From Chitinibacter bivalviorum (GTDB lineage Bacteria > Pseudomonadota > Gammaproteobacteria > Burkholderiales > Chitinibacteraceae), in contig NZ_CP058627.1 in NCBI RefSeq assembly GCF_013403565.1, forward strand, positions 2,232,001 to 2,296,000: a stretch of 64,000 nucleotides of DNA. The letters are read 5' to 3'. This document shows positions 4,065 through 18,321 of this stretch, piece by piece. The position numbers and the translations under genes were made by a program. The number at the start of each line of letters is the position of its first letter. The stretch's first letter is position 1. The notes below the pieces were generated by a model that saw nothing but the letters and a program-made list of their open reading frames with translations, was not told where the DNA came from and ran no database searches.

Positions 4065-4450
4065 CATGATCTTCGGCGGCACGACCTGCGCTTAATCGAG
4101 AGCGCCACGCAATTGAGCGAATACATTATTGGATCTAGATTGCAATGATCCAGCGTTGCTCGGCGAATAGGTGATACATGCAATGGCGTCCAAACCACAA
4201 CGCTATATGCGGGGAAGAATTCGAGCAAAAGTGAAACGACAGGCTTAACCCTGCGGCCTATTAAACAAGGCGATTGTCGCATTTTTTATGCAATATTCAT
4301 GAAAAGACAGCATTCTCAAAAGACAGCCAACACATTGATTTTATTTAACTATTCGATTAAAAATGCGACATTCGTGAAATCACGCTAGTTGCAAACACCT
4401 AATTGTCATCTGCGCAGGCATAGTGGACTCCGTGTTGAAGGAGTCTCACG
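4065..4450 (+). promoter_or_regulatory. Intergenic region with inverted and direct repeats upstream of the deacetylase cluster
   Basis: No gene is evident in these 386 bases. A perfect 12-base inverted repeat, TGTCGCATTTTT at 4275-4286 and its complement at 4359-4370, brackets the AT-rich centre. A 10-base direct repeat AAAAGACAGC occurs at 4302-4311 and 4318-4327 (period 16). A longer imperfect direct repeat (ATGC-A-ATTC-TGAAA pattern) lies at 4288-4308 and 4363-4383, exactly 75 bases apart. This density of repeats just ahead of the deacetylase genes suggests operator sites. The binding protein is unknown. Confidence 0.45.
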
Positions 4451-5521
4451 ATGAAAGCGCAAAACTTTGTACTGGCGGTATTAGCCTTTGCGGCGTTTGC
4501 CCTACTGGCATTCGTGCCGCTACTAGCCCACTCGGCCAGCATTGAGGTCAAAGTCTGGCAAGGCGGCGCCAAGGCCGCGCATACCATTGCCCATGATGAT
4601 TACTGCGGCTGGGGCACCACCGGCATTGAAGACACAGCCATCCCAATTTTGAATGCACGTGGGCTAAAAGCCAGCCTTGGCCTGATTGCGGGCAACTGTA
4701 AAGATGCGCAATGGGCAACGCTGAAAGAGCGCGTAAAACAAGGCCACGAACTCTTCAATCACACACTCACCCACGTTGGCATGCTCGAAGCGGGCACGCT
4801 TGCGCCCATCGGCGGCTGGGATAACGTCAAAGAAGTCGTCAACGCGCAGCAACTGGTGCAAAGCAAGCTAGGCTACACGATGCATTTTATTGCCTTCCCC
4901 AGCGATTTAGTCACGCCCGAAGCCAAAGCATTTGTCGAAGCGCAGCCCGATATTTTGGGCGCACGCGCCGCCAAAGATATTTACGACGGCAGCAATGCTG
5001 GCCTAAATGATCCGGAATGGTTTAAGCCAATGTTTGTGAAATGGGATGGCTATTGGCGCGATGGTAAGTGGTCACTCTACAAACCGAAAGACGGCAATAT
5101 CCTGATCCAGCACGTCGATGCCGCCCTGCAATACGGCGCGTGGAGCTATCGCACCATGCACGGCGTCGCTGATGCGTCTTGGGAATCCGTACCCGTCGAT
5201 CAATACACTGCCTACGCCGATTATCTCGCCGCCAAAGTCAAATCGGGCGAGCTATGGGTAGCTGGGCCGACCGACATTATTCGTTACATCGTCACCCGAG
5301 AGCACTGCAAACTCAAATTGGAAGGCAATGTGATTAAGCTAGTGCAATCCAATGATCTGTGTAAACGCTACGCCAGTGCCGTCACCGTGGATGTTGAGTT
5401 GGCTAATGGTCAGAAAGGCTTATTTAGCCAAAATTCAACACCATTAGCCGCGCAAAAACTCGAAAATGGTCATTATCGAATCAATATGAATCCGGCAGTT
5501 GGTGATGTGACTATTCGCTAA
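4451..5521 (+). CDS. Secreted polysaccharide deacetylase, single-domain paralogue
   Basis: The 356-residue protein has a signal peptide (MKAQNFVLAVLAFAAFALLA..., cut after AHS-A) and a NodB-like carbohydrate esterase 4 domain. Visible motifs are HDDY near residue 50 (the catalytic and metal aspartate pair of motif 1), the metal-binding NHTLTH (motif 2), a motif-3 position reading FPSD rather than the usual RxPY, and a late histidine in RTMHGV. A C-terminal ~70-residue beta-type tail carries two cysteines. A good AAGGAG ribosome site precedes the ATG. It is the first of three tandem paralogues and the only one without chitin-binding modules, so it could act on soluble oligosaccharides. Chitin or chitooligosaccharides are the likely substrate by context, but peptidoglycan or another N-acetylated glycan is possible. 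Confidence 0.8.
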   Translation: MKAQNFVLAVLAFAAFALLAFVPLLAHSASIEVKVWQGGAKAAHTIAHDDYCGWGTTGIEDTAIPILNARGLKASLGLIAGNCKDAQWATLKERVKQGHELFNHTLTHVGMLEAGTLAPIGGWDNVKEVVNAQQLVQSKLGYTMHFIAFPSDLVTPEAKAFVEAQPDILGARAAKDIYDGSNAGLNDPEWFKPMFVKWDGYWRDGKWSLYKPKDGNILIQHVDAALQYGAWSYRTMHGVADASWESVPVDQYTAYADYLAAKVKSGELWVAGPTDIIRYIVTREHCKLKLEGNVIKLVQSNDLCKRYASAVTVDVELANGQKGLFSQNSTPLAAQKLENGHYRINMNPAVGDVTIR

Positions 5522-5719
5522 TTTAGACACAGAACAAGCCATTTAATCATTAACTAAATATCGTTGTCGCACTACGAATGCCGACATCGATTTACTACCG
5601 AGCAATCGCCTCGATGTGCGCAAGGGAGTCATTAAAGCCAAGTATGGGGTGGCGATGACTCCAACAATACCCATGGCCAATGAGCAAATGGGAACAAAAA
5701 CAAAAAGGATGGAGATCTC

Positions 5720-7441
5720 ATGAAGTTTCATTTAAGCGCATTACCCGCAGCCATTGCGGTCATTTCTGCAAGTGCATTTGCAGCACCAGCATGGAACAGC
5801 ACCACCGTCTATTTGGGTGGTGAAGTCGTGACCTATGCCGGCAAAGACTACAAAGCGAAATGGTGGACTCAAAACAATATCCCTGGCGCTGAGCAATGGG
5901 GCCCGTGGGAATTACAAAATACAGTAGTCACACCAACTACCGCACCAACGGCTATTCCAACTATTGCACCGACTGCCGCACCGACTGCTGCACCAACTGC
6001 CGTTCCAACTGCTGCACCAACTGCTGCACCAACTGCTGCACCAACTGCTGCACCAACTGCTGCTCCGACTGCCGCACCGACTACCGTTCCAACTGTGGCC
6101 CCGACGATTGCTCCAACTGCCGCTCCGACGGCTACGCCCAACGTCAGCGCCACACCCGCACCAGCAGCGGATGCGTGGAATGCCAATATGACTTATACCG
6201 CAGGAAAACGCGTCAGCTACAATGGCCGCGCCTATGAAGCGAAGTGGTATACCGTCGGTGATGTACCATCCCAATCAGGTGCCTATGGTGTTTGGAAAGA
6301 TTTAGGTCCAATTGCCACGCCAGCCCCTACAGCCATACCAACTGCCACCCCGAGCAGCAAACCCGCTGTCAGCACGAGCATCAGTAGTATTCAAGCCAGT
6401 ACTTGGAAAAACGGCGCTAAAGCGGCGTATTCAATGATGCATGATGATTTATGTGCTTGGGTGACTGATGGTCAAATCGATTATGCCGCGCCAGCCCTCA
6501 AAGCACGTGGGCTCACCTCATCTTTCGGCATGATCACAGGCAGCTCTTGCGGCGCCAAGCACTGGGCGGCGGCGCAGCAATTTCTAAATGATGGCCATGA
6601 AATTTTCAGCCACACCCGCAACCATTCAGATGCCAATAGCGCACTGTGGGATACCGCAGGCGAAATCAGTGGCTCTAGCGATGACATCGCGGCGCATTTG
6701 AATGGCTACCGCCCGACATTCTTTGCTTGGCCATCTGGCGTGGCCGCAGATCTACCACTGGCTTACTTGCGCACCGCTCCGGGCTATATCGGTGGGCGTG
6801 CGGCAAATCGCGTCGATCCAAACGGCATGGTGATTTACGATGGCCATATTACGGGCATTAATACCCCAACCACACCTGATGCATATCAAATCCGTTCGGA
6901 AGTTTTCACCCTGAGTGCCCAATATTCAGAATACGAAACACAAGTCAAAGCGGGTGGCGACCTGCTTAATCTACATCTCGAAGCAGGTATCAATAAGCAG
7001 GGCTGGGCAGTGATGACTATGCACGGTGTGAATGACACCTCATGGAATAGCGTGCCATTACAACAATTCACCAATCACTTGGATGTGGTCAAAGCCAAGG
7101 TCGATGCCGGCCTACTTTGGGTCGCTGGCCCTAGCGAAGTATTGAAATACACTTATGCACGCGAAGCCTGCAAACCGGTACTCAATAACAATCAAAGCGC
7201 CCTTACATTTGATACCAGCTCACCCGATTGCGTGAAAAATGCAACGCCGCTGACTTTGAAAATCAGCAAACCCGCGACCGTTGGGCAATTCTATGTCGAA
7301 CAAGCCGGTCAAGCAGTGGCCATTAAACCGCTTGGCAATTATCCGATCTGGAGTGCCGGACAGGCTATCCCTGCGGTCAATTACGATTACCTGATTACCG
7401 TCAATCCATTAGGGGGTGCGGTCAGCTTTATGCTGAAATAA
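5720..7441 (+). CDS. Chitin-binding polysaccharide deacetylase (2x CBM5/12 + NodB domain)
   Basis: This 573-residue secreted protein has, in order: a signal peptide (residues 1-22); a CBM5/12 module (about 23-67; WNSTTVYLGGEVVTYAGKDY, KAKWWTQNNIPG, WGPWE); a long TAAP/TVAP repeat linker (70-145); a second CBM5/12 module (149-196; AYEAKWYT, GVWKDLG); a short linker; the NodB-like deacetylase domain (about 225-490); and a C-terminal beta-rich tail. Catalytic motifs are MHDDLC, SHTRNH, WPSG at motif 3 and MTMHGV. The Trp/Tyr pattern of the CBMs is that of type-3 chitin-binding modules, so the substrate is probably solid chitin or its fragments. The ribosome site AGGATGGAG precedes the ATG. It is homologous to both neighbours. 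Confidence 0.87.
   Translation: MKFHLSALPAAIAVISASAFAAPAWNSTTVYLGGEVVTYAGKDYKAKWWTQNNIPGAEQWGPWELQNTVVTPTTAPTAIPTIAPTAAPTAAPTAVPTAAPTAAPTAAPTAAPTAAPTAAPTTVPTVAPTIAPTAAPTATPNVSATPAPAADAWNANMTYTAGKRVSYNGRAYEAKWYTVGDVPSQSGAYGVWKDLGPIATPAPTAIPTATPSSKPAVSTSISSIQASTWKNGAKAAYSMMHDDLCAWVTDGQIDYAAPALKARGLTSSFGMITGSSCGAKHWAAAQQFLNDGHEIFSHTRNHSDANSALWDTAGEISGSSDDIAAHLNGYRPTFFAWPSGVAADLPLAYLRTAPGYIGGRAANRVDPNGMVIYDGHITGINTPTTPDAYQIRSEVFTLSAQYSEYETQVKAGGDLLNLHLEAGINKQGWAVMTMHGVNDTSWNSVPLQQFTNHLDVVKAKVDAGLLWVAGPSEVLKYTYAREACKPVLNNNQSALTFDTSSPDCVKNATPLTLKISKPATVGQFYVEQAGQAVAIKPLGNYPIWSAGQAIPAVNYDYLITVNPLGGAVSFMLK
5936..6140 (+). repeat. 12-base tandem repeats encoding the Thr-Ala-Ala-Pro linker
   Basis: Inside the deacetylase gene the linker is coded by about 17 degenerate 12-base units (ACTGCTGCACCA-type, Thr-Ala-Ala-Pro). 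Between 6007 and 6060 at least four consecutive units are identical. Such in-frame repeats tend to vary in copy number by slippage without breaking the frame. Confidence 0.85.
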
Positions 7442-7449
7442 ACAGTGAC

Positions 7450-7477
7450 GGCCAAGCGCTGTCGATTGGGCTTGGCC
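7450..7477 (+). terminator. Hairpin after the second deacetylase gene (weak terminator or processing stem)
   Basis: A perfect 8-base stem, GGCCAAGC at 7450-7457 with GCTTGGCC at 7470-7477, lies nine bases after the stop codon. No T run follows, so a classical Rho-independent terminator is doubtful. It may stabilise the mRNA end or partly terminate before the third deacetylase gene. Confidence 0.4.
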
Positions 7478-7492
7478 AAGCAAAAAAGCTGA

Positions 7493-7541
7493 ACGTATAT
7501 CAGCAAAGATCAATATTAATAAGACTTACCGGGCAATACCT
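7493..7541. repeat. Degraded copy of the 49-base palindromic-ended repeat
   Basis: This 49-base stretch ends in ACGTAT and ATACCT and shares the internal GCAAAGAtCAAT block with the copy at 9962-10010. It has the family's exact length but mutated tips. It lies in the leader region of the third deacetylase gene. Confidence 0.55.
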
Positions 7542-7622
7542 ATAAAAGCAAAACCATTCAGCCTTGATGCCGGAGCAAGCTGAATAACTGCAGTACTCAA
7601 ATAAAACAGGATGGAGAGACCT

Positions 7623-9362
7623 ATGCAACAACAATACCAAGGTGCGCAAAAAGCACTGATATTGAGCTTGGCCGCGACAGGTATGCTGTCGCTGGCCAGC
7701 GGTGCGTTTGCCGCGCCCACTTGCTCGCAAAGCATCTGGAGCGAAGGCAAAACCTACACCGTCAATACCGTGGTCGCCTACAGTGGCCACAACTACACCG
7801 CACTGACGACGCACACCGCCTACGTCGGCGCAAATTGGAATCCCGCCGCGACGCCCACATTGTGGAAAGACGCGGGGGTTTGCGATTTTAATGATGTCGC
7901 CCCTACCCCAACACCGGTGCCGACACCCGCCATCACCGCAAGTCCTACTCCAGTGGTCACAGCAAGCCCAACGCCGACCCCAGTTGTGACGGCCAGCCCT
8001 AGCCCTACGCCCGTGGTAACCGCGAGCCCAGCGCCAACAGCAATTCCATACTTGACACCAAACCCAACGCCGAGCGCCAACACGTGGGTTAGCTCAACGG
8101 CCTACACCGCAGGACAGCGCGTGGTGTATAACGGCCACCAGTTTGAAGCCAAATGGTGGACGCAAGGCCAAGCACCGTCGACGACCGATCAGTGGGGGCC
8201 GTGGAAAGATTTGGGCGTCATCGCGGCAATGACACCAACACCCGCACCTACAGCAACGCCAAAACCTACGCCAACACAGACCGATTGCGCTTGTGCAACC
8301 CCGACTCCAACCCCAAGTCCAACATCGAACAAGACCGCCGTCATTGGTGCGGTACAAACGACAACTTGGAAAAACGGTGCCAAAGGTGCGTATTCATTGG
8401 TGCACGATGACTATTGCTCAATGCCGATCGCGACAGACCCGTACATCAAAATCATTGATCCGGAGCTGAGCAAACGGGGCCTCACCGCTGGGTTTGGCAT
8501 GATTACCGGCAGCTGTTCTGAGCAACACTGGGCGGCAGCCAAAGACTTCATCGCCCACGGCCACGAGATTGTCAGCCATAGCCGTAATCACCCCGATCCA
8601 TACATCAGCGATGCAGCGCTTGAAGATCAACTCAATGGCTCAGCCGCGGATATTGCCGCCAAATTAAATGACTACAAAGCCAGCTATTTTGTGTGGCCGA
8701 GCGATGCAGCTTCGACGGTGGCCACCGATTTCCTGAAAAACAAAACCAATTACCTCGGCGGACGCGCTTCTCATCTGGTTGCCAACGGCACTGTGGATTA
8801 CACCACGATGCCAGCGGGCGTGAATGCGGCCAACTTTGACAATCCATTCCGCATCAAATGGGATCTATTTACTGTCGATGGTAAATGGTCACTCTACCCG
8901 ATGGGCAGCGAAATTCTGAATCTGCACATCGATGCCGCGATTAACCAAGGCGCTTGGACAACACGCACCATGCACAGCGTGGATACGGGCTACTGGGAAA
9001 CCGCACCATTGGCGCGCTATCAGGCTCACCTCGACTACGCCAAAGCGAAGGTCGATGCCGGCGAGTTGTGGATGGATACGCCCAGCAACGTGATCAAATA
9101 CCGCTATGCGCGTGAATTCTGCAAAGTGATGCTGCCGGCCGTCATAGGCAATAACACCATTGCATTCGACACCAGTGCAGCGGAATGCCAGAAATACGCG
9201 ACGCCCATTACCTTACAGGTTACGGCATTGCTGCAAGGCGGCGGTTTGACTGCGATTCAGGCGGGCAAAGCATTGCCAGTCAAAGCAGGCCCAAACAATA
9301 GCTACTTTGTCACGGCAGACCCACTGTCCGGCGCGGTGAGCTTCGCTTACTTTATGCCGTAA
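7623..9362 (+). CDS. Chitin-binding polysaccharide deacetylase (2x CBM5/12 + NodB domain), third paralogue
   Basis: The product has 579 residues if started at MQQQYQG; GGAGAGACCT just before 7623 is a good ribosome site, so the ATG at 7611 is disfavoured. A signal peptide ends near ASGAFA. A first CBM5/12-like module (about 34-88) contains IWSEGKTYTVNTVVAYSGHN and LWKDAG. A Pro-Thr linker with a three-fold PVVTASP repeat follows, then a second CBM5/12 (about 155-200; FEAKWWTQGQAP, WGPWKDLG), another Pro-Thr linker, and the NodB-like domain with VHDDYC, SHSRNH, WPSD and RTMHSV. It ends with the same cysteine-bearing tail as its paralogues. Linker sequence differs completely from the second paralogue, so only the catalytic and binding domains are conserved. 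A strong terminator follows. Confidence 0.87.
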   Translation: MQQQYQGAQKALILSLAATGMLSLASGAFAAPTCSQSIWSEGKTYTVNTVVAYSGHNYTALTTHTAYVGANWNPAATPTLWKDAGVCDFNDVAPTPTPVPTPAITASPTPVVTASPTPTPVVTASPSPTPVVTASPAPTAIPYLTPNPTPSANTWVSSTAYTAGQRVVYNGHQFEAKWWTQGQAPSTTDQWGPWKDLGVIAAMTPTPAPTATPKPTPTQTDCACATPTPTPSPTSNKTAVIGAVQTTTWKNGAKGAYSLVHDDYCSMPIATDPYIKIIDPELSKRGLTAGFGMITGSCSEQHWAAAKDFIAHGHEIVSHSRNHPDPYISDAALEDQLNGSAADIAAKLNDYKASYFVWPSDAASTVATDFLKNKTNYLGGRASHLVANGTVDYTTMPAGVNAANFDNPFRIKWDLFTVDGKWSLYPMGSEILNLHIDAAINQGAWTTRTMHSVDTGYWETAPLARYQAHLDYAKAKVDAGELWMDTPSNVIKYRYAREFCKVMLPAVIGNNTIAFDTSAAECQKYATPITLQVTALLQGGGLTAIQAGKALPVKAGPNNSYFVTADPLSGAVSFAYFMP

Positions 9363-9426
9363 AACCTTCCCCGCCCCGTTTTGGGAGCAAAATGGGGCAG
9401 CGCAAGCCTTCCGCTTGAGCTTTGAC

Positions 9427-9466
9427 TCCCCACCCGCCAGAGCCTTCTGACGCGTGGGGATTTTTT
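9427..9466 (+). terminator. Rho-independent terminator of the deacetylase cluster
   Basis: CCCCAC near 9428-9433 pairs with GTGGGG ending at 9459, with additional pairing through CCAGA/TTCTG. Six T residues follow at 9461-9466. It sits 65 bases after the last deacetylase stop codon. Confidence 0.8.
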
Positions 9467-9554
9467 CATTACCCAGAGCATGTTAAGCTGCCGCCCTTGT
9501 GAGATAAAAGCCATTGGGCGAAGTTTGCCGATTTAGGCTGGATTTAGAGGTTTT

Positions 9555-9962
9555 GTGGTTACCATTAAGAAACGCAACGTCATTACCGTCACCGATCTGG
9601 GCCGCACCGAAACTTGGGTGAAGTTTTATAACGGCCTGTGTGATGATTGTGTCGGCAGCTGCTGTACGATGCCAGTGGAAGTCAAGATTGTTGATTTGAT
9701 TCGCTTGGGGGTGGTCGATGAATTTGATGCGGTAGAGCCCGCGAAAAACATCGCCAAACGACTGATGAAAGCGCGCATCATCGAGCATTTTAATTTCAAA
9801 AACGAAATTTATACGCTCGCCCGCCGCAGTAATAATGACTGTATTTATCTGGACGCCAACACCCGCCGCTGTACCGTGTATGAAAACCGCCCCAATACCT
9901 GTCGCAAACATCCGCAAGTAGGCCCACGCCCCGGCTTTTGCGCCTACAACCAAAAAAGATAG
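9555..9962 (+). CDS. YkgJ-family cysteine-cluster protein
   Basis: The 135-residue cytoplasmic protein belongs to the CxxCxxxCC (YkgJ/UPF0153) family, thought to chelate zinc or iron. Visible ligands are CDDCVGSCC near residue 30, then CIYLDANTRRC, NTCRKHP and a terminal FCAYN, the usual eight-cysteine pattern. The start is a GTG at 9555 with GAGG a few bases ahead. It is preceded by the deacetylase terminator and is therefore its own transcript. Its biological role is unknown for the family. The first base of the following 49-base repeat is the last base of its stop codon. Confidence 0.82.
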   Translation: MVTIKKRNVITVTDLGRTETWVKFYNGLCDDCVGSCCTMPVEVKIVDLIRLGVVDEFDAVEPAKNIAKRLMKARIIEHFNFKNEIYTLARRSNNDCIYLDANTRRCTVYENRPNTCRKHPQVGPRPGFCAYNQKR

Positions 9963-10010
9963 GGTATAGCTGCAAAGACCAATTTATAATTAGCCTTTAT
10001 TGCTATACCC
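9962..10010. repeat. 49-base palindromic-ended intergenic repeat, copy A
   Basis: It begins GGGTATAGC (9962-9970) and ends GCTATACCC (10002-10010), a perfect 9-base inverted repeat at exactly 49 bases total. The AT-rich interior contains AAAGACCAATTTATAAT. It lies between the convergent cysteine-cluster gene and the small gene at 10018. Confidence 0.8.
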
Positions 10011-10017
10011 AACTAGT

Positions 10018-10263
10018 CTAGCCCTTCGCAGGAATTCCCCAGTCATCTTCTTTTTCAGCTTCTAGCTTTTCATTGGCCTGATTAGATTCGTAACGACGAT
10101 GGCTTGCTGACGCCAATGCAGCTTCAAATTGGGCGCGCTGCTCGTCTGACATATCCAGCTTGAGTACTTCCAATGTGCTCGCAGCCTGATATGAAGTCAG
10201 CGCATCTACACTTTGCAAAGCCTCCAATAATGGGTCCAGTTTGCTAGCACTAATCGTGGTCAT
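10018..10263 (-). CDS. Small acidic protein of unknown function
   Basis: I do not recognise this 81-residue protein. It is predicted to be helical, with LDPLLEALQSVDALTSYQAA and MSDEQRAQFEAALASA, and ends in a charged tail (EAEKEDDWGIPAKG). There is no signal peptide or membrane segment. A longer frame exists to 10383, but that extension is cysteine- and tryptophan-rich and overlaps the end of the upstream cyclase gene, so the internal ATG at 10263 is preferred. It lies about 100 bases downstream of the diguanylate cyclase gene on the same strand and could be cotranscribed with it. Confidence 0.55.
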   Translation of the reverse strand: MTTISASKLDPLLEALQSVDALTSYQAASTLEVLKLDMSDEQRAQFEAALASASHRRYESNQANEKLEAEKEDDWGIPAKG

Positions 10264-10360
10264 AAGCTTATCTTTTAAGAAGAAAACAGGACATCGGAAT
10301 GACGCCAACTTCGATCGTACCAAACCTTCCCAGTGATAAGCTCTATCGCGGCCAAGGTGA

Positions 10361-11401
10361 TTAAAACAACTCGTCAGAGCCACACTCTACTTGCGTTTGT
10401 GGCAAAGTATCAAAAAACACCATCTTGTTTCGCCCGCCTTCTTTAGCGGCATACAAAGCCTGGTCTGCACGCCCCAGCGTGATACTCAGCACTTCATAAG
10501 GGCGAATATCGGTAATACCGCCACTGATCGTGACCTGACCGATTTGTGGAAACTGATGCTGCTCGACTTTTTTCCGAAAACGCTCTAGCGCCAAGATTGC
10601 GCCCTCACGGGTTTGTGGCCCCAGAATGATGACAAACTCTTCACCACCAAATCGGAATAAACGGTCATTCGCGCGAAAACAACTCCGCATTAATTGCGCC
10701 ATGATCAGCAACACTTCATCGCCGTATAAATGGCCCAATTTATCGTTTATGCGTTTGAAATGGTCGATATCGAGTACTACGAGGAAATAATACGCCATAC
10801 CGTTTTCTTGGCGGCGGCCCGCTTGTAATGGCTGTACGCCGGGCAAATTTTGCAAAGCAGTTACAATTTTGAAGAATTGCCGCTCCAGCGTTTTACGATT
10901 GAGCAGGCCAGTCAAGGTATCCGTTTCGCCATAATCCAGCAGCGCGATATGATTCTCATAGATACGAGCCATGCCTTGCAGCATTCGAAAATCGGAGGGA
11001 ACGAGGCCTTTGCCCAAGTTCAAATCGAGCAGCGCATAAACTTCGTTTTGCCGATGCAAACCGAGAATGACTCGGTTGCCATTGGCTGCGACTTGTAATG
11101 AGCTTTCCGACACCAGAGCGCCATGCAATAAAGGGTCGATTTCGGGTGCGGTGCCATTTTGCTGGGCATTTAAGCCTTCAGCGGAATGCTGTCGAATCCC
11201 GTTTTCATCAAACTCGACCAAGAGCCCAAGCCGATGCTGCTTGCCCGTGGCAAGAGTGCGATAAAAACGCAGTGAAACGACGGGCAGCATTTCAAAAAAA
11301 GTCAGGCACAAACTCACCGCCAAATCGTCGCGATCAATCAGCCCAGTGAATTCCGCCAAGGAATGAACAAGGTCTTGTGGAGTTTTGGAATTAAGCGGCA
11401 T
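10361..11401 (-). CDS. Diguanylate cyclase (GGDEF domain)
   Basis: The 346-residue protein makes cyclic di-GMP from two GTP. The C-terminal GGDEF domain (about 165-330) has an intact active site, RFGGEEFVIIL, and an inhibitory I-site RAND five residues before it, so product inhibition is expected. It also has the LDIDHFKRINDKLGH metal/substrate segment. The N-terminal ~160 residues look like a GAF-type sensor domain (LRFYRTLATGKQHRLGLLVE, then ALLDLNLGKGLVPSDFRML). No transmembrane helix is visible, so it is probably a soluble sensor cyclase. It sits just downstream of the GH18-LytTR gene on the same strand, separated by about 85 bases. Confidence 0.9.
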   Translation of the reverse strand: MPLNSKTPQDLVHSLAEFTGLIDRDDLAVSLCLTFFEMLPVVSLRFYRTLATGKQHRLGLLVEFDENGIRQHSAEGLNAQQNGTAPEIDPLLHGALVSESSLQVAANGNRVILGLHRQNEVYALLDLNLGKGLVPSDFRMLQGMARIYENHIALLDYGETDTLTGLLNRKTLERQFFKIVTALQNLPGVQPLQAGRRQENGMAYYFLVVLDIDHFKRINDKLGHLYGDEVLLIMAQLMRSCFRANDRLFRFGGEEFVIILGPQTREGAILALERFRKKVEQHQFPQIGQVTISGGITDIRPYEVLSITLGRADQALYAAKEGGRNKMVFFDTLPQTQVECGSDELF

Positions 11402-11485
11402 GATGTGGAGACTTAGAATGCTGATGAGTTGTCAAATTAGTCAACCCAAACCCATGCTGCAACTTGAATCTTAAACTCTGGCTAT

Positions 11486-13789
11486 CTAAGCGGGTTCCGC
11501 CGCAGAAAACCATTGCGGATAGACCTGGCGTAAACGAGATAAATACTGCCGAGAAACCGGAATCATTTCCGAGCCAATTTGCAACTCCCAAGTATCGCGA
11601 GCACGTTTTTTTATACCCTGCACCTTTTTCGGATTCACCAGGTAGGAGCGATGCACTTGCAATAACACGCCCTCATCAAAATACAGGCGAATCGCCCGCA
11701 AACGCAGCGTGATATAGCTTGGCGCGACCAGGTCTTGCGCAAAAATGGCGCTATAGCCTTTATCGGCGCGGATAAACAGCAATTTATCGCGTCGTGAAGC
11801 GATCTCGTACAGCTCAGATAAAAGCTGCGGCTGCTTGCCCAGCTCATACAGCGACCGGCGCACGATGCGCACTTGCTCAATCACACTGCGGTAATACAGC
11901 TGATCATCTTCACTGAGCGCACCCTTAAACTGCAGATTGAGCTGGTAATCATCCAGCACGGCATGAAGCTGGCTGGCTGGCGCGATCGGTTCCGCCGAAA
12001 CTGGGCTCGCGGCCTCATCATCGTCCAGTTGCTGCACTTCAGCCTGGCGAATCAATGGATCGTCGGCCAGAAAGCCCAAAGTCACTTCCAACATTTTTTC
12101 CAGACTGCGCTGCTCAGATAAACGCTGCGTCAACATACTCAGCGCCGCAATGCGCTGCCCGCCAAGCTGGGCGGGTAGATTGGACAGTGGCGATGGCGTG
12201 CTTGATTCAGCACCATGCACAGGCAGGGGCTGCGTTGATTGAGGTAGTACTCCTACTTCATCATTGCTGGCAGCGATCCGCGCTGTAGTTGCTGCGGTTT
12301 GAGGCTGCAAAGGCTCGATCTGCCACGCAATGCGATCGGCCACTTCCGCCCATTGCGGCAGCGGCCACTGTTGCACGGCATTGCTGGCAGGCGCAGCCAA
12401 GCTCAATTGGCGCAACTGCCCTAATTGGCTTGGTAAATCATCGATGATGCCTTTAATGCAGCGCAATTGAGATAGCTCGATCTCTTGCTGCTGGCGGCGA
12501 CGATGGCGAATCAGCCCCCAGCTCACTAGCGCCAAGACGCTCAAACCGACGACAACCCCAGCCAAAAGCTCGACCCACACCGGATGATACCGCCACCACA
12601 GTCGCAAATCATTTTGATACGCGCGCAGTGGATTGGCGGCAATTTCGGTCTGTCGCAGCAAACTCTGCGCGCTGGCATCGCTGGTGATTTCCCACAAAGC
12701 CACGCCCAGCAAATGCCGCGCCCGGGCATAATTGAGTTTACTGGCCAAAGCACGCGGCGTTTCGACGCTGATAAATTGCTGCAAGCTGGGGCTGTAATAA
12801 GTGCTGGCCTGCGCTGCCTCATCCCAATGCTGGGCAAAACCATTGCCCAGCTGCAAAGCCGCGATTTCATCCTGACCAAAAATACCCGTCGCACCTGTTT
12901 GCTCGTTATCCCACGAGCCCATGCTCACACCATGGTGAATTTGACCCAAGCCATTTTGCTCGGAAGCCACACCATTAAAGCTCACACCCTGTGTTGGAAT
13001 CAACAAGGCTAATTTCGCCAATGGCAGACCATTTCTTTCTAGGGTATTGACTGCAGAATCAATGCTCAATTGGCCTTGATCGCTATACAGCGGAGATTTA
13101 TGCCCTGTCGCCTTACTCCACGCGCCAACAAAATCGGTCGCCAGCAACATCGCATAGTCGATTTTTGGCGCCAGCTCCGTCCAAGGCACGGCGGAAATCT
13201 GCTCGTTCAGGACGCCCGCCGTCACGCCAATAATCAGCTCAGGCTTAGCCGCGCGCAGCTCAGTGACAAAGCGCAACAAATTAGCGCCATCTTTCACGCT
13301 CGCCGCATTGCCCTCACGCCCGTGGCCGCCGGGATAACGCCAGTCGATCTCGATACCGTCAAAGCCATGTTGCTGCAAAAACAAAACGGTCGACTGCACG
13401 GCTTGAAGACGCAAAGCGGGGTCAGCAAAAATCGTTGAAAAATCAGCCGAATAATTCCAGCCACCGACGGCCAATACGGTTTTGAGCTGTGGATGCTGCG
13501 CTTTGAGTGATTTGAGCAGCGCATAATTACCGCGCAACATACTGCCATCAGGCTGAGTATAGGTTTTATTCAGATCTGCAAACACATCGCCCGCCAGCAA
13601 TTGGCCGTCGGGAGCAAAATGCGCAAAGGCGTAGGTGAGCTGATCGAGCCTAGAGAGCGGCAAATCAGCCATCGCTTTGGTTTGGCTATAGCTCACCCAG
13701 AATGGGTAATAGGCGATCACTGGTGATTTAGCCTGCGCCGACCCCGCCGACAGCAGCACCAGCGCGAGTAAACATAAGAACTTGCGCAT
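11486..13789 (-). CDS. GH18-like periplasmic domain fused through a membrane helix to a LytTR DNA-binding domain
   Basis: This 767-residue protein has a signal peptide (1-20), a GH18 chitinase fold (about 22-370), one strong transmembrane helix (about 407-429, ELLAGVVVGLSVLALVSWGL) followed by RHRRR, a long Gln/Pro/Ala-rich cytoplasmic linker with helical segments (430-660), and a C-terminal LytTR domain (about 665-760; QVHRSYLVNPKKV and IPVSRQYLSRLR). The GH18 catalytic motif DxxDxDxE reads D144-G-I-E147-I-D149-W-R151, so the proton-donor glutamate is arginine. The usual MxYD tyrosine segment reads LLATDF. The late tryptophan (ALWEI) is kept. Sugar binding without hydrolysis is therefore likely, making this a candidate one-component membrane regulator. 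Topology places GH18 outside and LytTR inside. Domain calls are firm; the sensing role is inferred. Confidence 0.88.
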   Translation of the reverse strand: MRKFLCLLALVLLSAGSAQAKSPVIAYYPFWVSYSQTKAMADLPLSRLDQLTYAFAHFAPDGQLLAGDVFADLNKTYTQPDGSMLRGNYALLKSLKAQHPQLKTVLAVGGWNYSADFSTIFADPALRLQAVQSTVLFLQQHGFDGIEIDWRYPGGHGREGNAASVKDGANLLRFVTELRAAKPELIIGVTAGVLNEQISAVPWTELAPKIDYAMLLATDFVGAWSKATGHKSPLYSDQGQLSIDSAVNTLERNGLPLAKLALLIPTQGVSFNGVASEQNGLGQIHHGVSMGSWDNEQTGATGIFGQDEIAALQLGNGFAQHWDEAAQASTYYSPSLQQFISVETPRALASKLNYARARHLLGVALWEITSDASAQSLLRQTEIAANPLRAYQNDLRLWWRYHPVWVELLAGVVVGLSVLALVSWGLIRHRRRQQQEIELSQLRCIKGIIDDLPSQLGQLRQLSLAAPASNAVQQWPLPQWAEVADRIAWQIEPLQPQTAATTARIAASNDEVGVLPQSTQPLPVHGAESSTPSPLSNLPAQLGGQRIAALSMLTQRLSEQRSLEKMLEVTLGFLADDPLIRQAEVQQLDDDEAASPVSAEPIAPASQLHAVLDDYQLNLQFKGALSEDDQLYYRSVIEQVRIVRRSLYELGKQPQLLSELYEIASRRDKLLFIRADKGYSAIFAQDLVAPSYITLRLRAIRLYFDEGVLLQVHRSYLVNPKKVQGIKKRARDTWELQIGSEMIPVSRQYLSRLRQVYPQWFSAAEPA

Positions 13790-13836
13790 TTCATTCCCCC
13801 AATCTGCGATCTAACGTCGCGATTTAAGTAATTAGA

Positions 13837-13935
13837 CAAAAGTTTTAGCCCGAGGCTACCTCGTCACGCGAGGCACACGCGACGCTCAGTACAAGTCGTA
13901 CGGCGAGGCGAAGTAACGAAGCGAGGGAACTTTTG
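13837..13935. repeat. 99-base intergenic inverted-repeat element
   Basis: CAAAAGTT at 13837-13844 is complementary to AACTTTTG at 13928-13935. Nested short repeats (CGAGGC, CGAGGCGAAG, GTAC...GTAC) fill the GC-rich interior, unlike the flanks. It lies between the PhyH-type gene and the GH18-LytTR gene. I saw no second copy in this window. Confidence 0.4.
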
Positions 13936-13965
13936 GTTTACTATTTTGGGGCTTAGCTTACAAGC

Positions 13966-14766
13966 TTATCCGTCCAGTCGCCATGAAATACCGTCTACGC
14001 TCGCCGAACGGGAGCCAGACTGTGGCAAATTGTCACTGGCATGATAACTAAACACCAGTGAGTACTTCGTTTGCGTCGTGCTATTGCGGCTGGCCGCGTG
14101 GAAAGTGCGCGCGTCAAACAGCACCACATCGCCCGCAGCAAGCGTCGGAAACTCAGCTTTGGCGACCCAAGGCGCGGCGGAGGGATGCTGGGGCAGCAGA
14201 AATTCGCGCTCATCAAACGCGGCATCGGGAAAACTCGCCAGATGCGAGCCAACAATAAAACCCAGCCCGCCATTGGCTGGCGATTCATCGCCCAGCGCCA
14301 GCCAGCTCGACACCAATTCTGGGCGCGCAAAACGCCAATAGCGCACATCGCGGTGCCACAGCGTATCGCTACTAAAACTCGGCTGTTTGGTCATCAGGCT
14401 ATTGTGATGCGCCTGCGTCAGCGTGATCTCGCGGCTGCCGAGCAATTGAGCGATCAATTGCAGCAACGATTGCTGCCCCGCCCATTCCATAAACACCGCA
14501 GCGCGCGTCGCCATCCCGCGCAAACGACGGATTGTTGCAGCGCCCTGCGCATCGCTCGATTTGGGTGCACCGGGGTAACCCAGCTCAGCTTCCAACTCCA
14601 GCGGCGGCAAACGTAATTCAAGCTGACGCATCGACTCAGCGCGTATCGCAGCGACTTGTTCAGCCGGCGCAAAGCTACGCAACACCACCACGCCATCGCG
14701 CGCAAACACCTGCGCAATCGCATTCACATCGCCAAAATCGGAAAAAGAAGTAATCGCCACAATCAT
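13966..14766 (-). CDS. Phytanoyl-CoA dioxygenase (PhyH) family protein
   Basis: This protein (266 residues from the chosen start) belongs to the Fe(II)/2-oxoglutarate-dependent PhyH family of hydroxylases. The iron ligands are visible as HRD in LWHRDVRYW (HxD motif) and the distal histidine in FDARTFHAASRNST; nearby S-K-Y-S could bind 2-oxoglutarate. The N-terminal FARDGVVVLRSF strand is typical. The start at 14766 (MIVAITSF) is preferred to 14817 because the extra 17 residues look unlike the family, but no strong ribosome site decides it. The substrate is unknown. It lies about 180 bases upstream of the GH18-LytTR gene on the same strand, with an inverted-repeat element between. Confidence 0.8.
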   Translation of the reverse strand: MIVAITSFSDFGDVNAIAQVFARDGVVVLRSFAPAEQVAAIRAESMRQLELRLPPLELEAELGYPGAPKSSDAQGAATIRRLRGMATRAAVFMEWAGQQSLLQLIAQLLGSREITLTQAHHNSLMTKQPSFSSDTLWHRDVRYWRFARPELVSSWLALGDESPANGGLGFIVGSHLASFPDAAFDEREFLLPQHPSAAPWVAKAEFPTLAAGDVVLFDARTFHAASRNSTTQTKYSLVFSYHASDNLPQSGSRSASVDGISWRLDG

Positions 14767-14883
14767 CAATCCACAAGTCAGAGGCTGATTGTACTGCAAT
14801 GACCCAATTAAGCCCATTCACGCCTATTTTCTGGCTTTGCACCATGCAGAAAAAGCATGCCGAACAAGGATTAGCTGATTTAG

Positions 14884-15633
14884 CTATGGCTGCTCAAAGT
14901 TTTTGGTGTGGCTCTCGGTGATTTTTTGCAAGCTACCATCATTGATGATGGCTGCTAAGGCTTGCTTCAACTGCGCAATACTACTTGGCGACGTAGTCTT
15001 GCTGCACCCTAAGTACAGATCTGCACTGTGGAACACAAAAATGGGTTTAATTTTCTCGGGATCTGCGCCAATCGACTTGGCAATAATTTTTGCGGTGTAA
15101 AGGCCACCCGCCATAATATCAATATGACCCGCATAGAGCTTTTTCATCGATTGCTCTTCTTCTGTAGCCAGATCGAGTTTAAACCCCAAATTTTCCAGAA
15201 ATTGAACCTTCCCATCTTTGCGCTGCCCACCAACTACATATTTTCGGGCCTCATCGAGGTTGGCCAGTTTGAGATTGCGTTCTCTGAGCGCAAACAGAGT
15301 CCATTTATTTTGAGCTAAAGGGCCGATCCAAATAAAGTCATCTTCACGAACCGGCAGCCGTGCCAAGCTAAATATGCAAGTGTCAGGCGTGGTTTGGGCT
15401 GAGCTCAAAGCACGCGCCCAAGGATATTGCACATAACTGTACCGTAATGGAGTGCGGCGCAGCAGCGCATCCACAATATCGACCACCATTCCAATCGGCT
15501 TACCATTTTCTAAATCGTTATAGGGAGGGTTATTGCCGACAAGTAGCGTTAATTCCGCGCTGTGTCCCACAGCGCTGACCCCAACCAGCACAGTCAGCAA
15601 CATTGCTTTTATTCGCAACGACAATCGCGACAT
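14884..15633 (-). CDS. Periplasmic solute-binding protein, amino-acid type (SBP_bac_3)
   Basis: The 249-residue product has a signal peptide (MSRLSLRIKAMLLTVLVGVSAVGHSA) and a type II periplasmic binding fold, with ELTLLVGNNPPYNDLENGKPIGMVVDIVDALLRR at the start of lobe 1 and a late ALAAIINDGSLQKI. No permease or ATPase gene is adjacent, so it is an orphan receptor-like protein. Similar orphans bind amino acids or related compounds, but the ligand is not deducible. The start codon is two bases from an 11-base G tract. A TTG start farther upstream would read through the tract, adding MSLGGGV, so tract length could affect expression either through initiation or frame. Confidence 0.8.
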   Translation of the reverse strand: MSRLSLRIKAMLLTVLVGVSAVGHSAELTLLVGNNPPYNDLENGKPIGMVVDIVDALLRRTPLRYSYVQYPWARALSSAQTTPDTCIFSLARLPVREDDFIWIGPLAQNKWTLFALRERNLKLANLDEARKYVVGGQRKDGKVQFLENLGFKLDLATEEEQSMKKLYAGHIDIMAGGLYTAKIIAKSIGADPEKIKPIFVFHSADLYLGCSKTTSPSSIAQLKQALAAIINDGSLQKITESHTKNFEQP

Positions 15634-15635
15634 CA

Positions 15636-15646
15636 CCCCCCCCCCC
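15636..15646 (-). repeat. Homopolymeric G tract (11 G on the coding strand) beside a start codon
   Basis: On the + strand this is 11 consecutive C; on the gene strand it is 11 G ending two bases before the ATG at 15633. Tracts of this length slip readily during replication and are established phase-variation switches in Neisseria. The tract also overlaps where the ribosome-binding site should be. Confidence 0.8.
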
Positions 15647-15916
15647 AGACTCAAGCGATATTCTTGTATTTTTTATAGCCAATCATGGCTTAATTACCGA
15701 AAGAATTTCGACGCCAACACACGCCAAATTGCCATTTTGCATCGCGATCACGAGATCAGTGACAGTGCGCGAGACAACGACCGAGACACCCCTCCCCTAA
15801 TCCAAAAACACTGCATCACGTATCGCCATGCCTCACAAATGACAGATCACCGCCATTTGCGCGAAGGAGTTGCAAACGGCGCGTCTCCACGGGCAATCCG
15901 TTCTAATGAATGACAG

Positions 15917-15965
15917 GGGTATATCAAGCAAGACCAATGAAATATTCAACTTCAGAGCAAAACCA
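15917..15965. repeat. Degraded copy of the 49-base repeat
   Basis: The left tip GGGTATATC is intact and the interior has AGCAAGACCAAT as in the copy at 9962. The right tip reads GCAAAACCA, two mismatches from GCAATACCC. It is exactly 49 bases. It lies in the otherwise gene-free stretch between the solute-binding gene and the HEAT-like gene; I see nothing else in 15655-15916. Confidence 0.5.
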
Positions 15966-15994
15966 AGGCAGGTATATATCGCGATGATTGGTCT

Positions 15995-16198
15995 GGGGCT
16001 TGAATTCCCGTGTAGAGAAAACCGCAGCGAGGAGGGAGACAAACAGTTTTATCGTTTGGCTCACGACGAAGCAAGGGCAGCGCGGAGCGCTTTTCGCCCG
16101 GGTCGCCTTTGGGGTGCAGGGGGCTTTGGCGAAGCAAAGCCCCCTGCCTGTCAGCGCGGCGGAACGCGCACCAAAAACATCGTGCCGTAGGCACTGAA
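15995..16198. repeat. ~200-base dispersed intergenic element, copy 1
   Basis: From GGGGCTT at 15995 to GTCGCCTT at 16102-16109 this is nearly identical to 25685-25798. The shared part includes GAGGAGGGAGACAAACAG and GCGGAGCGCTTTTCGCCCGG. It then carries a perfect 13-bp hairpin (16116-16128 with 16135-16147, loop GCGAAG) and ends in CGTGCCG-AGGCACTGAA, also shared. The hairpin sequence is unrelated to that of copy 2. No protein is believed to be coded. Confidence 0.75.
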
Positions 16199-16270
16199 AA
16201 TCATTACAATCTTTGAAATAAAATGGGCTGCAATCGGCCAGTAGCAGTCATAATCATACGGGTGAGCGCT

Positions 16271-16585
16271 ATGAGGCCAGTTAATGTTGATGAATGGTTA
16301 AATGAAATACTCTCTAGGGATGCAATGACGTTTGAGGAGGCATACTGGAGAGAAAGGCCACCAGCGAATGAAGCTGTGCCAAGAATACTTCAGGCACTAA
16401 CTGCCCCTTTAGACTCATATACAAGAGGTAAGCTCATAGAACTTCTGGGGGAGTGTGAAGATTTATCCGTGCTCCATGTTCTCGAAAAAGAGCTATTAAG
16501 CCCTGATGAATCCATGCAATTCTGGGCAAGCTTAAGTATCGATGCACTCAATAGTCTTGCCCCGTGGCAGAAAAGTTCAAAGTAA
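16271..16585 (+). CDS. Small HEAT-repeat-like protein
   Basis: The 104-residue protein, started at MRPVNVDEWLN, has paired helices resembling HEAT/ARM repeats: ALTAPLDSYTRGKLIELLGECEDLSVLHVLEKELL followed by SMQFWASLSIDALNSL. Small HEAT proteins of this kind occur as immunity or scaffold proteins, but no toxin partner is adjacent, so no function is assigned. An upstream frame extends to 16223, but that extension lacks family features. Composition is more AT-rich than the neighbouring genes and the gene lies between a dispersed repeat and an insertion sequence, which suggests horizontal acquisition. Confidence 0.55.
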   Translation: MRPVNVDEWLNEILSRDAMTFEEAYWRERPPANEAVPRILQALTAPLDSYTRGKLIELLGECEDLSVLHVLEKELLSPDESMQFWASLSIDALNSLAPWQKSSK

Positions 16586-16685: not shown

Positions 16686-18321
16686 CAGGCTGTGTAAAAA
16701 CACATAAACACTCGACCGGTATAATTCTTGGAACTCTCCGCCAAGGATGATTCTATGCCCAGATTCATTGTAGGTGAAAGCAGAACCCAAACATTGCTGC
16801 TGCCTGAATGCTTGGAAGATTATATCAGCGCGGACAACCCCGTCCGGGTCGTTGACCAGTTCGTTGAATACCTAGATTTAAAGGCACTCGGTTTCGATGG
16901 GGTTGAGCCAGAAGCCACTGGCCGCCCAGCCTACCATCCCAGCACGATGCTCAAGCTGTATATCTACGGTTACCTCAACAGAATCCAATCTAGCCGTCGC
17001 TTGGAACGTGAAGCCCACCGGAATCTAGAGCTGATTTGGCTCACCGGTCGCTTAATGCCCGACTTTAAAACCATCGCCAATTTCCGCAAAGATAATGGGC
17101 CAGCGATTTGCAAGGTTTGCGGGCAGTTTGTCCAGTTATGTCGGCAACTCAGTTTATTTAGCAACGCCATTGTGGCAATTGATGGCAGCAAGTTCAAAGC
17201 CGTTAATCATCGCGACCGCAACTACACCAGCAACAAACTCGCGAAGCAACGGGAGCAAATCGAAGCGAACATTGCAAGTTACCTGCGGGAGATGGAAATT
17301 GCAGACCGGCAACAGCCCGATATTGCAGAAGCCAAGGTCGCTCGCTTGCAGGACAAGTTGGCGCGACTGAAGTCGCAGATGGCCCGCCTGGATGAGGTCG
17401 AGGCTCAACTCGCCAAGACGCCAGACAAACAGATTTCACTCACCGACCCAGATGCCCGTTCCATGGCGACCAGCGGCCGTGGCAGTGGTGTTGTGGGTTA
17501 TAACGTGCAAACCGTTGTCGATGCCAAGCACCATTTAATTATTGCGCATCAGGTCACCAATCAAGGGCATGACCGTACGCAGCTGGCCAATATGGCCCAA
17601 CAAGCCAAAGCAGTCCTCGCACAAGAAACAATAGAGGTGGTCGTAGACCGAGGTTATTACAACGGTGATGAAATACTGGCGTGTGAACAGGCGGGCATTA
17701 CGGTTTTGGTGCCGAAACCGCAAACCTCAGGTGCTAAAGCAGATGGGCGCTTTGGCAAAGATGAATTCCACTATGACCCAGCTCGTGATGAATATGTCTG
17801 CCCAGGCAATAGCCGACTAATTCATCGTTTTGTGAGCTTGGAAGCTGGGCGCTATATGAGCCGGTATTGGAGTTCTGACTGCCCACGTTGCCCGCTCAAG
17901 ACCAGATGTACACCGAGTGATTACCGGCGCGTGAGTCGCTGGGAGCATGAGGCCGTACTGGAAAAAGCGCAGCAGCGATTGGAATTGCAACCAGATGCAA
18001 TGCGTGTTCGACGGCAGACCGTTGAACATCCCTTTGGGACGCTAAAAGCCTGGATGGGGGCAACGCATTTCCTAATGAAGACCTTGAAGCACGTCAGTAC
18101 AGAGATGAGTTTGCATATACTCGCGTATAACATGAAGCGAGTTATGAACATAATGGGAAATCAAGCAATGTTGGTGGCAATGAAGGGCTGAAAGGCCTTT
18201 TAATTGCTGTTTTTAGTGGTGTTATTCATGAAGTTTTACGTTTACTTCAAGCAACACGCGCGTGATTCAAATTGGTTAGGCAAAATAACCCACGTCGGTC
18301 TTGGCGTTTTTACACAGCCTG
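16686..18321 (+). mobile_element. IS1182-type insertion sequence, complete
   Basis: The 1636-base element is bounded by perfect 16-base terminal inverted repeats: CAGGCTGTGTAAAAAC at 16686-16701 and its complement at 18306-18321. The outer flanks carry a GGTC direct repeat (16682-16685 and 18322-18325), a plausible 4-base target duplication. It contains one intact transposase gene. Joining the flanks restores a short segment leading into the terminator at 18337. Confidence 0.85.
16755..18191 (+). CDS. IS1182 family transposase (DDE)
   Basis: The 478-residue transposase cuts and rejoins the element ends. The N-terminal DUF772-like region (FIVGESRTQTLLLPECLEDY; AYHPSTMLKLYIYGYLNRI; RRLEREAHRNLELIWLTG) is diagnostic of IS1182/IS1380-like DDE enzymes. 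Catalytic acids are likely in VAIDGSKFKAV, VVDRGYYNGDEI and TVEHPFGTLKAWMG. A coiled-coil insertion (residues ~150-225) follows the first Asp. A cysteine cluster (CPGNSR..., CPRCPLKTRC) sits in the C-terminal half. The start at 16755 is chosen because AAGGATGATTCT precedes it. The frame is intact, so the element may be active. Confidence 0.92.
   Translation: MPRFIVGESRTQTLLLPECLEDYISADNPVRVVDQFVEYLDLKALGFDGVEPEATGRPAYHPSTMLKLYIYGYLNRIQSSRRLEREAHRNLELIWLTGRLMPDFKTIANFRKDNGPAICKVCGQFVQLCRQLSLFSNAIVAIDGSKFKAVNHRDRNYTSNKLAKQREQIEANIASYLREMEIADRQQPDIAEAKVARLQDKLARLKSQMARLDEVEAQLAKTPDKQISLTDPDARSMATSGRGSGVVGYNVQTVVDAKHHLIIAHQVTNQGHDRTQLANMAQQAKAVLAQETIEVVVDRGYYNGDEILACEQAGITVLVPKPQTSGAKADGRFGKDEFHYDPARDEYVCPGNSRLIHRFVSLEAGRYMSRYWSSDCPRCPLKTRCTPSDYRRVSRWEHEAVLEKAQQRLELQPDAMRVRRQTVEHPFGTLKAWMGATHFLMKTLKHVSTEMSLHILAYNMKRVMNIMGNQAMLVAMKG

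What the first reader, a model, noticed from the sequence alone, without database searches (positions are those of the whole stretch)
11486..13789. GH18-like pseudoenzyme fused through the membrane to a LytTR transcription-factor domain
Seen: signal peptide, GH18 fold, one transmembrane helix, basic stop-transfer, cytoplasmic linker, C-terminal LytTR domain. The catalytic DxxDxDxE motif reads D144xxE147xD149xR151, so the proton-donor Glu is Arg, and the catalytic MxYD segment reads LLATDF. Known: GH18 proteins lacking the acid act as lectins, and LytTR domains bind DNA. Inference: this is a one-component, ToxR-like membrane regulator that senses chitin-derived or peptidoglycan-derived sugars directly through a dead chitinase. 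It lies a few kb from three secreted chitin-binding deacetylases and next to a diguanylate cyclase. I do not know of a described regulator with this domain order.
Basis: partly seen in the sequence, partly recalled or inferred. Interest (0 to 1): 0.88.

Follow-up and report, generated by a model that had tools for sequence, protein, structure and literature searches.

The report
Dead-chitinase sensor wired to gene switch
Some chitin-eating bacteria carry a membrane protein whose outer half is a chitinase that has lost its cutting residue and whose inner half looks like a DNA-binding gene switch; a matching paired DNA box stands in front of chitin-modifying enzyme genes, so the dead enzyme probably serves as a sensor.

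Summary
The gene (minus strand, 767 aa) encodes a signal peptide, a GH18 domain with catalytic Glu replaced by Arg, one transmembrane helix and a C-terminal LytTR domain. A reduced GAF-like domain probably precedes LytTR.

It belongs to a family in Chitinibacteraceae and some gammaproteobacteria. 79 of 80 members lack the catalytic Glu and none of 80 keeps the full catalytic set. The sensor domains form one group apart from 16 enzymes. Long members keep a decayed histidine kinase, so the family looks like a hybrid kinase that became a one-component regulator.

New: a probable operator. Deacetylase (CE4) genes beside the regulator share a promoter with two RTTSRTGAA boxes 73-76 bp apart, an IHF-like site between them and often CATAGT about 40 bp further on. 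In 43 family genomes, 15 of 18 exact box pairs precede CE4 genes and one a GH18 gene, some far from the regulator.

Best reading: a membrane one-component regulator that senses chitin fragments and switches on CE4 genes. Ligand and DNA binding are untested. New sensor and operator on a known kind of regulator.

The parts
11486..13789 (-). GH18-TM-GAF-like-LytTR regulator gene, 767 aa
13730..13789 (-). signal peptide, residues 1-20 (ends AQA; judged by eye and hydropathy)
   Evidence: coordinates
12677..13720 (-). GH18 pseudo-chitinase domain, residues 24-371, outside the cytoplasm by predicted topology
13337..13360 (-). ruined catalytic motif D144xxE147xD149xR151 (Glu to Arg)
12524..12580 (-). 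single transmembrane helix, residues 404-422, followed by a basic stretch
   Evidence: the model has one long helix 403-465
11828..12184 (-). probable reduced GAF-like domain, residues 536-654
11525..11788 (-). LytTR DNA-binding domain, residues 668-755
4295..4303 (+). predicted operator box 1, ATTCATGAA
4328..4340 (-). IHF-consensus-like site, AATCAATGTGTTG (9 of 9 specified bases)
   Evidence: consensus WATCAANNNNTTR recalled
4370..4378 (+). predicted operator box 2, ATTCGTGAA, 75 bp after box 1
4419..4424 (+). -10-like CATAGT, 40 bp after box 2
4451..5521 (+). CE4 polysaccharide deacetylase, first gene behind the boxes (predicted target)
   Evidence: HDD and HTxxH motifs
5720..7441 (+). CE4 deacetylase with two CBM5/12 stretches; same strand, 198 bases on, possibly the same transcript
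7611..9362 (+). CE4 deacetylase with two CBM5/12 stretches; same strand, 169 bases on, possibly the same transcript
10361..11401 (-). GGDEF protein downstream of the regulator; also near it in the five other loci of this genus examined

Best explanation
It is a membrane-bound one-component regulator. The outer GH18 domain no longer cuts but probably still holds chitin oligomers in its groove (inferred). Binding would be passed through the single membrane helix and the long cytoplasmic helix to the GAF-like part and then to the LytTR domain (inferred). The LytTR domains would bind two RTTSRTGAA boxes standing 73-76 bp (about seven helical turns) apart; IHF would bend the DNA between them so that both boxes can be held together near the membrane, and with the second box about 40 bp upstream of a -10-like element this would activate CE4 chitin-deacetylase-type genes (inferred from anatomy and conservation). 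Shown here: domain order, predicted topology, near-universal loss of the catalytic acid, grouping of the sensor domains, linkage to CE4 genes, and the conserved promoter layout.
For: Domains and topology. Loss of Glu: 42 of 42 in the first protein set, own included; 40 of 40 loci (3 of 43 dropped, see Tried and rejected); 29 of 29 family-genome copies with a GH18 domain, own included (1 of 30 has none); 79 of 80 in the largest set (these sets overlap). 25 of 25 non-regulator GH18 domains of the same genome or of the neighbourhoods keep D147, D149 and Y218; 21 align with Glu and the other 4 have a gap at that column. Groove residues mostly kept in the 80: W31 (aligned with CsChiL W50) 75, W111 75, W224 64. 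One group in the GH18 tree: 69 regulators against 16 enzymes, SH-aLRT 99; 74 against 16 likewise (L058 and L059 left out there). Linkage: a CE4 match within 2.5 kb of a regulator copy in 21 of 22 regulator-bearing family genomes (read by hand off; in the 8 genomes with two copies, of one of them); also CE4 beside the regulator in 4 Motilimonas loci and Marinifaba, GH18 genes beside it in other gamma loci. Boxes: 18 places of TTCAYGAA-N64..69-TTCAYGAA in 43 genomes; 15 precede CE4 genes and 1 a CBM5/12-GH18 gene, in the gene's orientation (the GH18 case is palindromic); 2 lie inside unrelated genes; the reversed control pattern gave 3 rows. Five of the 15 lie far from the regulator gene (G004:C17, G010:C7, G036:C17, G037 at 1.70 Mb, G038 at 2.13 Mb). 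Over 60 other gaps I count 34 places, 11 of them one homologous coding stretch, none within 2 kb of a CE4 match (by hand). IHF-like site best at the same spacer position in 23 of 27 promoters, ties included; mean 7.48 of 9 against 4.13 (sd 0.73) over all positions. All 12 family genomes with a pair before a CE4 or GH18 gene carry the regulator. The boxes resemble the AlgR (LytTR family) box CCGTTCGTC, two copies of which lie at -470 and -394 of algD, a promoter that also binds IHF (PMC4064291 passages). Family genomes with the regulator have a median of 14.5 GH18 matches (22 genomes, 5-27), those without 6 (21 genomes, 0-9) (the regulators' own GH18 included).
Against: No ligand or DNA binding is shown. 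LytTR sites are described as direct repeats 10-13 bp apart (PMC11347149 passage), not 65 bp. G019 has two CE4 genes and no regulator found at E 1e-25, yet both promoters keep the layout with one box decayed: recent loss, or the boxes serve another protein. Marinifaba L041 has regulator and CE4 but no such pair, and no convincing pair was found around the own genome's GH18 matches, so the regulon may be narrow. The 27 promoters were picked because they have the pair, so their spacing is descriptive; L116, with a weaker pair, and second fetches of the same promoters were left out. In 11 of the 27 no (C/T)ATAGT was found. Tyr at the MxYD position is kept in only 10 of 80 and W366 in 48 of 80, so the -1 site may no longer hold a sugar as in chitinases. 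P0053 keeps Glu and Tyr. Relatedness of the genomes inflates all counts.
Confidence: 0.72

Rival explanations
1. A membrane-bound chitin-binding lectin or anchor whose LytTR domain is a passive remnant; the paired boxes belong to another regulator of chitin genes.
For: Boxes persist in decayed form in G019, which has no detectable regulator; the box-regulator link is only correlative.
Against: LytTR keeps many invariant residues across 42 proteins; all 50 proteins of the second search keep both domains; all 12 family genomes with a box pair before a CE4 or GH18 gene carry the regulator; boxes resemble a LytTR-family site.
Confidence: 0.12
2. The outer domain senses something other than chitin: peptidoglycan fragments, deacetylated chito-oligomers, or a partner such as a periplasmic chitin-binding protein, as reported for ChiS.
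For: ChiS of Vibrio cholerae is activated by chitin-bound chitin-binding protein (PMC11856585 passages); Tyr and W366 are often lost; targets are deacetylases, so deacetylated oligomers are a plausible signal.
Against: W31, W111 and W224 are mostly kept and neighbours are chitin genes in several lineages.
Confidence: 0.2
3. It acts as a repressor, or needs a second signal inside the cell through the GAF-like part.
For: CoxC, a membrane LytTR regulator, is a repressor (PMC11347149 passages); a GAF-like fold is probable.
Against: Where found, CATAGT starts 40-41 bp after box 2 (16 of 27), an upstream position usual for activators (recalled); the GAF-like part is small and has no Pfam match.
Confidence: 0.2
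4. An ordinary cell-bound chitinase with an odd tail.
For: Sources name many members 'chitinase' or 'glycosyl hydrolase family 18 protein'.
Against: Catalytic Glu absent in 79 of 80 and the full catalytic set in 80 of 80; the 10 other own-genome GH18 domains that aligned keep Glu.
Confidence: 0.03

Closest known systems
CoxC and membrane-bound single-component LytTR regulators (PMC11347149, passages read)
   Same: LytTR output fused to a membrane-borne sensor in one protein; binds direct repeats
   Different: CoxC senses CO with a seven-helix MHYT domain and represses; here the sensor is a GH18 pseudoenzyme outside one helix, and the predicted boxes are about 75 bp apart
ChiS and TfoS of Vibrio cholerae, chitin-responsive transmembrane regulators (PMC11856585 passages; PMC8092284 outline and section 10)
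   Same: chitin response from the membrane; ChiS, a hybrid kinase by its domains, binds DNA directly, parallel to the decayed-kinase members here
   Different: ChiS is activated through a chitin-binding protein and has a cryptic HTH domain; whether TfoS senses chitin directly is stated to be unclear; neither is described there with a GH18 domain
RsgI anti-sigma factors of Clostridium thermocellum (PMC12203970, passages read)
   Same: a glycoside-hydrolase (GH10) or carbohydrate-binding domain outside, one membrane helix, a regulator part inside
   Different: the output is an anti-sigma domain released by proteolysis, not a DNA-binding domain; the GH family differs
CHI3L1/YKL-40-type chitinase-like lectins
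   Same: GH18 fold without catalytic acid, chitin-oligomer binding (both recalled); CHI3L1 entries are among the PDB relatives
   Different: animal secreted proteins without membrane or DNA-binding part (recalled)
AlgR of Pseudomonas aeruginosa (PMC4064291, passages read)
   Same: LytTR family; box CCGTTCGTC resembles RTTCGTGAA; two algD sites at -470 and -394 and IHF binding at that promoter
   Different: two-component response regulator
Cache-HAMP-PAS-HisKA-HATPase-REC-LytTR hybrid kinases (L062 and L064, Pfam-scanned)
   Same: share the LytTR end and, weakly, the stretch before it
   Different: kinase motifs and receiver kept, Cache sensor, no GH18

Membership tests
GH18 family (fold) | GH18 profile match above the curated cut-off | tested here: met
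   204 bits against 29.6
active GH18 chitinases | DxxDxDxE with catalytic Glu | tested here: not met
   Arg at 151
active GH18 chitinases | Tyr of the MxYD segment | tested here: not met
   Thr at 218
active GH18 chitinases | hydrolysis of chitin | not testable with these tools
   needs an assay
LytTR domain family | profile match and LytTR fold | tested here: met
transmembrane one-component transcription regulators (TTR) | DNA-binding domain and transmembrane helix in one polypeptide | tested here: met
   (predictions)
transmembrane one-component transcription regulators (TTR) | binds promoter DNA while in the membrane | not testable with these tools
   only conserved boxes found
CoxC subfamily | MHYT seven-helix sensor | tested here: not met
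   no MHYT match; one helix after the signal peptide
ToxR/CadC family | winged-helix Trans_reg_C domain (recalled) | tested here: not met
   no such match
hybrid histidine kinase | HisKA and HATPase_c in this protein | tested here: not met
   no match; long relatives have decayed versions
RsgI anti-sigma factors | RsgI N-terminal anti-sigma domain | tested here: not met
   no match
GAF domains | GAF fold | tested here: inconclusive

The most novel reading that the evidence does not exclude
A regulator family made by double enzyme decay: a hybrid histidine kinase first took a chitinase as its outer sensor, then lost both the chitinase's acid (R, Q, P, H, N and others in its place) and the kinase, leaving a one-component direct chitin receptor that works by clamping two boxes about seven turns apart across an IHF bend. 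P0053, placed at the base when rooted on enzymes, still has the Glu, the Tyr and (by eye) a His at the phospho-acceptor place and would be a surviving intermediate.
Probability: 0.5. Interest if true: 0.88.

Novelty: new variant of a known kind. Interest (0 to 1): 0.8.

Why it matters
If true, it is a direct chitin receptor in bacteria made from a dead chitinase, with a predicted target set and a promoter layout that gel-shift and reporter assays can test directly. It suggests how members of a chitinase-rich bacterial family sense chitin, shows a stepwise route from hybrid kinase to one-component regulator, and gives a possible natural case of DNA looping at the membrane. It also means that database entries of this family called 'chitinase' are probably regulators.

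Tried and rejected
Considered and rejected: frame artefact (homologues keep both domains in one frame); a LytTR site of the recalled consensus with 10-15 bp spacing (only Marinifaba L041 matched among 31 CE4 and 22 regulator upstream regions); a sigma-54 promoter (judged by eye only on the sequences); a known RNA element in 3500-16500 (no Rfam match); box pairs around the own genome's GH18 matches L001-L015 (none convincing); sequence search of the cytoplasmic part in the PDB (below 1e-3 only 3d6w at E 8.6e-4).

Counts with drops: of 53 loci (L019-L061) are relatives with GH18 and LytTR; L037 and L043 were dropped from the active-site count because my frame choice failed there (their contigs, by length, carry P0043 and P0026, which have Arg) and L055 because its frame is split. 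Of 15 own-genome GH18 matches, one is this gene, 10 aligned and have Glu, 4 (L011-L013, L015) did not reach my profile's threshold and were not examined. Of 12 long members, the phospho-acceptor place reads Q in 9, K in 1, R in 1 and H in 1 (L046). Of 15 box pairs before CE4 genes, in L131 and L135 the longest open frame runs through the boxes, so a downstream start is assumed. Phylum sample: 1 of 398 genomes (this one) at E 1e-12, with at most 5 candidates scored per genome.

Searches for prior description: 25 of 41 listed; 25 of 63 listed; 10 of 113 listed. Papers: PMC8802321, passages and section 10 (figures not held); PMC8092284, outline and section 10; PMC10269533, PMC11856585, PMC12203970, PMC4064291 and PMC11347149, passages only; all others, search listing only. 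The library holds open-licence PMC papers only.

Full report

Is the enzyme dead? The DxxDxDxE motif reads DxxExDxR and the MxYD segment LLATDF. In the largest set, 57 proteins from two searches plus 23 gammaproteobacterial loci, the catalytic position holds R 44, Q 14, P 6, H 5, N 3, L 2, F 2, K 1, I 1, T 1 and E 1. The single Glu is in P0053, a protein without organism name on a 3,173-base contig, whose motif is DxxExDxE. None of 80 has the set D147, D149, E151, Y218. In contrast all 25 other GH18 domains from the same genome or from the neighbourhoods have D147, D149 and Y218, and 21 of 25 align with Glu (4 gaps; those rows show an E a few columns on). The groove tryptophans W31, W111 and W224 are kept in 75, 75 and 64 of 80, W366 in 48; their roles as groove residues are recalled, except that W31 aligns with W50 of CsChiL, mutated in entry 6kxn.

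Origin. With 16 enzymes as the other side, the sensor domains form one group in two quick trees (SH-aLRT 99), with P0053 at the base in the second, rooted one (that fork is weakly supported); enzymes were sampled thinly, so one origin is favoured, not proved. LytTR relatives without GH18 include hybrid kinases (Cache, HAMP, in two of four also PAS, then HisKA, HATPase, REC, LytTR; L062, L064, L066, L067 scanned), some of which also match the stretch before LytTR weakly. The long (about 930 aa) gammaproteobacterial members carry between membrane and GAF-like part a stretch that matches such a kinase by profile comparison (probability 95.4, E 2e-8), with the phospho-acceptor His replaced in 11 of 12 and the ATP-binding boxes unrecognisable by eye. 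The short Chitinibacter form lacks this stretch. So a route from hybrid kinase to one-component regulator is visible.

Distribution. 22 of 43 genomes of the family (8 of 11 genera) carry it at E 1e-25, but no other genome in a phylum sample of 398 at E 1e-12. In the named species collection it also occurs in Motilimonas, Marinifaba, Colwellia, Thalassotalea, Psychromonas, Teredinibacter, a Saccharospirillaceae MAG and one Vibrio. Family genomes with it hold more GH18 matches (median 14.5 against 6).

Neighbourhood. Here three CE4 genes, two with CBM5/12, stand 2-7 kb away; all three have the HDD and H(S/T)xxH motifs (recalled as CE4 motifs). In the family a CE4 match lies within 2.5 kb of a regulator copy in 21 of 22 genomes (exception G010); second copies are not so linked. 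In Motilimonas a CE4 gene follows directly (L030, L031, L036, L057); other Motilimonas copies precede CBM-GH18-like genes (L042, L047, L048, L058); in Colwellia and Thalassotalea a TonB-receptor-like gene follows, with a GH18 gene further on where the locus reaches that far (the TonB reading is by eye).

Operator. Motif counting upstream of 31 CE4 genes led to a pair of boxes RTTSRTGAA. In 27 promoters that I picked for having the pair, start-to-start spacing is 74 (11), 75 (11), 73 (3) or 76 (2); an IHF-consensus match on the reverse strand sits at spacer position 23-24 as the best or joint best match in 23 of 27; (C/T)ATAGT starts 40 bp (14) or 41 bp (2) after box 2, and was not found in 11. 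The four Motilimonas promoters share the spacing, with boxes TTGGTGTA, TTGGTGCA or TTGGTGAA; two closely similar ones of the four have a 9 of 9 IHF match at the same place. As a freer test I scanned 43 genomes for the exact pair: 18 places at the six gaps 64-69, of which 15 precede CE4 genes, 1 (G004:C10) precedes a gene for a CBM5/12-GH18 protein and 2 lie inside unrelated genes. The same pair at 60 other gaps gave 34 places, 11 of them one homologous coding stretch, and none lies within 2 kb of a CE4 match (read by hand). Five CE4 promoters with the pair are unlinked to the regulator gene, including that of G010, the genome where the linkage is broken. This argues for action in trans.

Against. 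G019 has no regulator found but keeps two CE4 promoters of this layout with one box decayed in each. Marinifaba lacks the pair. The own genome's GH18 loci lack it. LytTR sites in print are spaced 10-13 bp, so 65 bp between boxes is unusual, although AlgR uses two sites at -470 and -394 of algD, and IHF acts there too. The regulon rests on sequence alone, and related genomes inflate the counts.

Known or new. Searches of the paper library for GH18 with LytTR (2 papers), LytTR with chitinase (7 papers) and related terms gave one relevant paper on this domain pair, PMC8802321, which lists LytTR in the legend of its figure of GH18 proteins and counts 4 of 25 secreted GH18 proteins without Glu; the passages I read do not treat them as regulators. 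CoxC is a described membrane single-component LytTR regulator, and ChiS and TfoS are described chitin-responsive membrane regulators. I therefore rate this a new variant of a known kind: known output and general plan, new sensor, new predicted operator, and a decay history.

Noticed in passing
window 7526-7540, and the same place in L109-L113: The gap before the third CE4 gene holds another conserved stretch, TTACCGG(G/C)CAATACC, also in the five other loci of this genus; no Rfam match.
   Followed up: partly
L117:4896-5711 (G030): A regulator copy reduced to its cytoplasmic part (294 aa open frame, no GH18 in frame) still beside a CE4 gene with a variant box pair.
   Followed up: partly
L055 (Psychromonas sp. 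Urea-02u-13): The regulator is split over two open frames; described only.
   Followed up: no
   Followed up: partly
L054, L060, L061 downstream of the regulator (about 11860 and 12219): ATTCATGAA-like pairs 73 bp apart near the next gene: possible further target.
   Followed up: no
G012:C2:96682-96755: A TTCAYGAA pair with a 58-base gap on the contig of the second regulator copy, probably near its 5' end: possible self-regulation.
   Followed up: no
L026, L027, L028, L032, L038: A second, paralogous regulator in several Chitinibacteraceae is not beside CE4 genes; its targets are unknown.
   Followed up: partly
window 16728-18191: DDE transposase between the regulator group and a histidine kinase/response regulator pair at 18400-20695 that recurs near the regulator in several relatives.
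   Followed up: no
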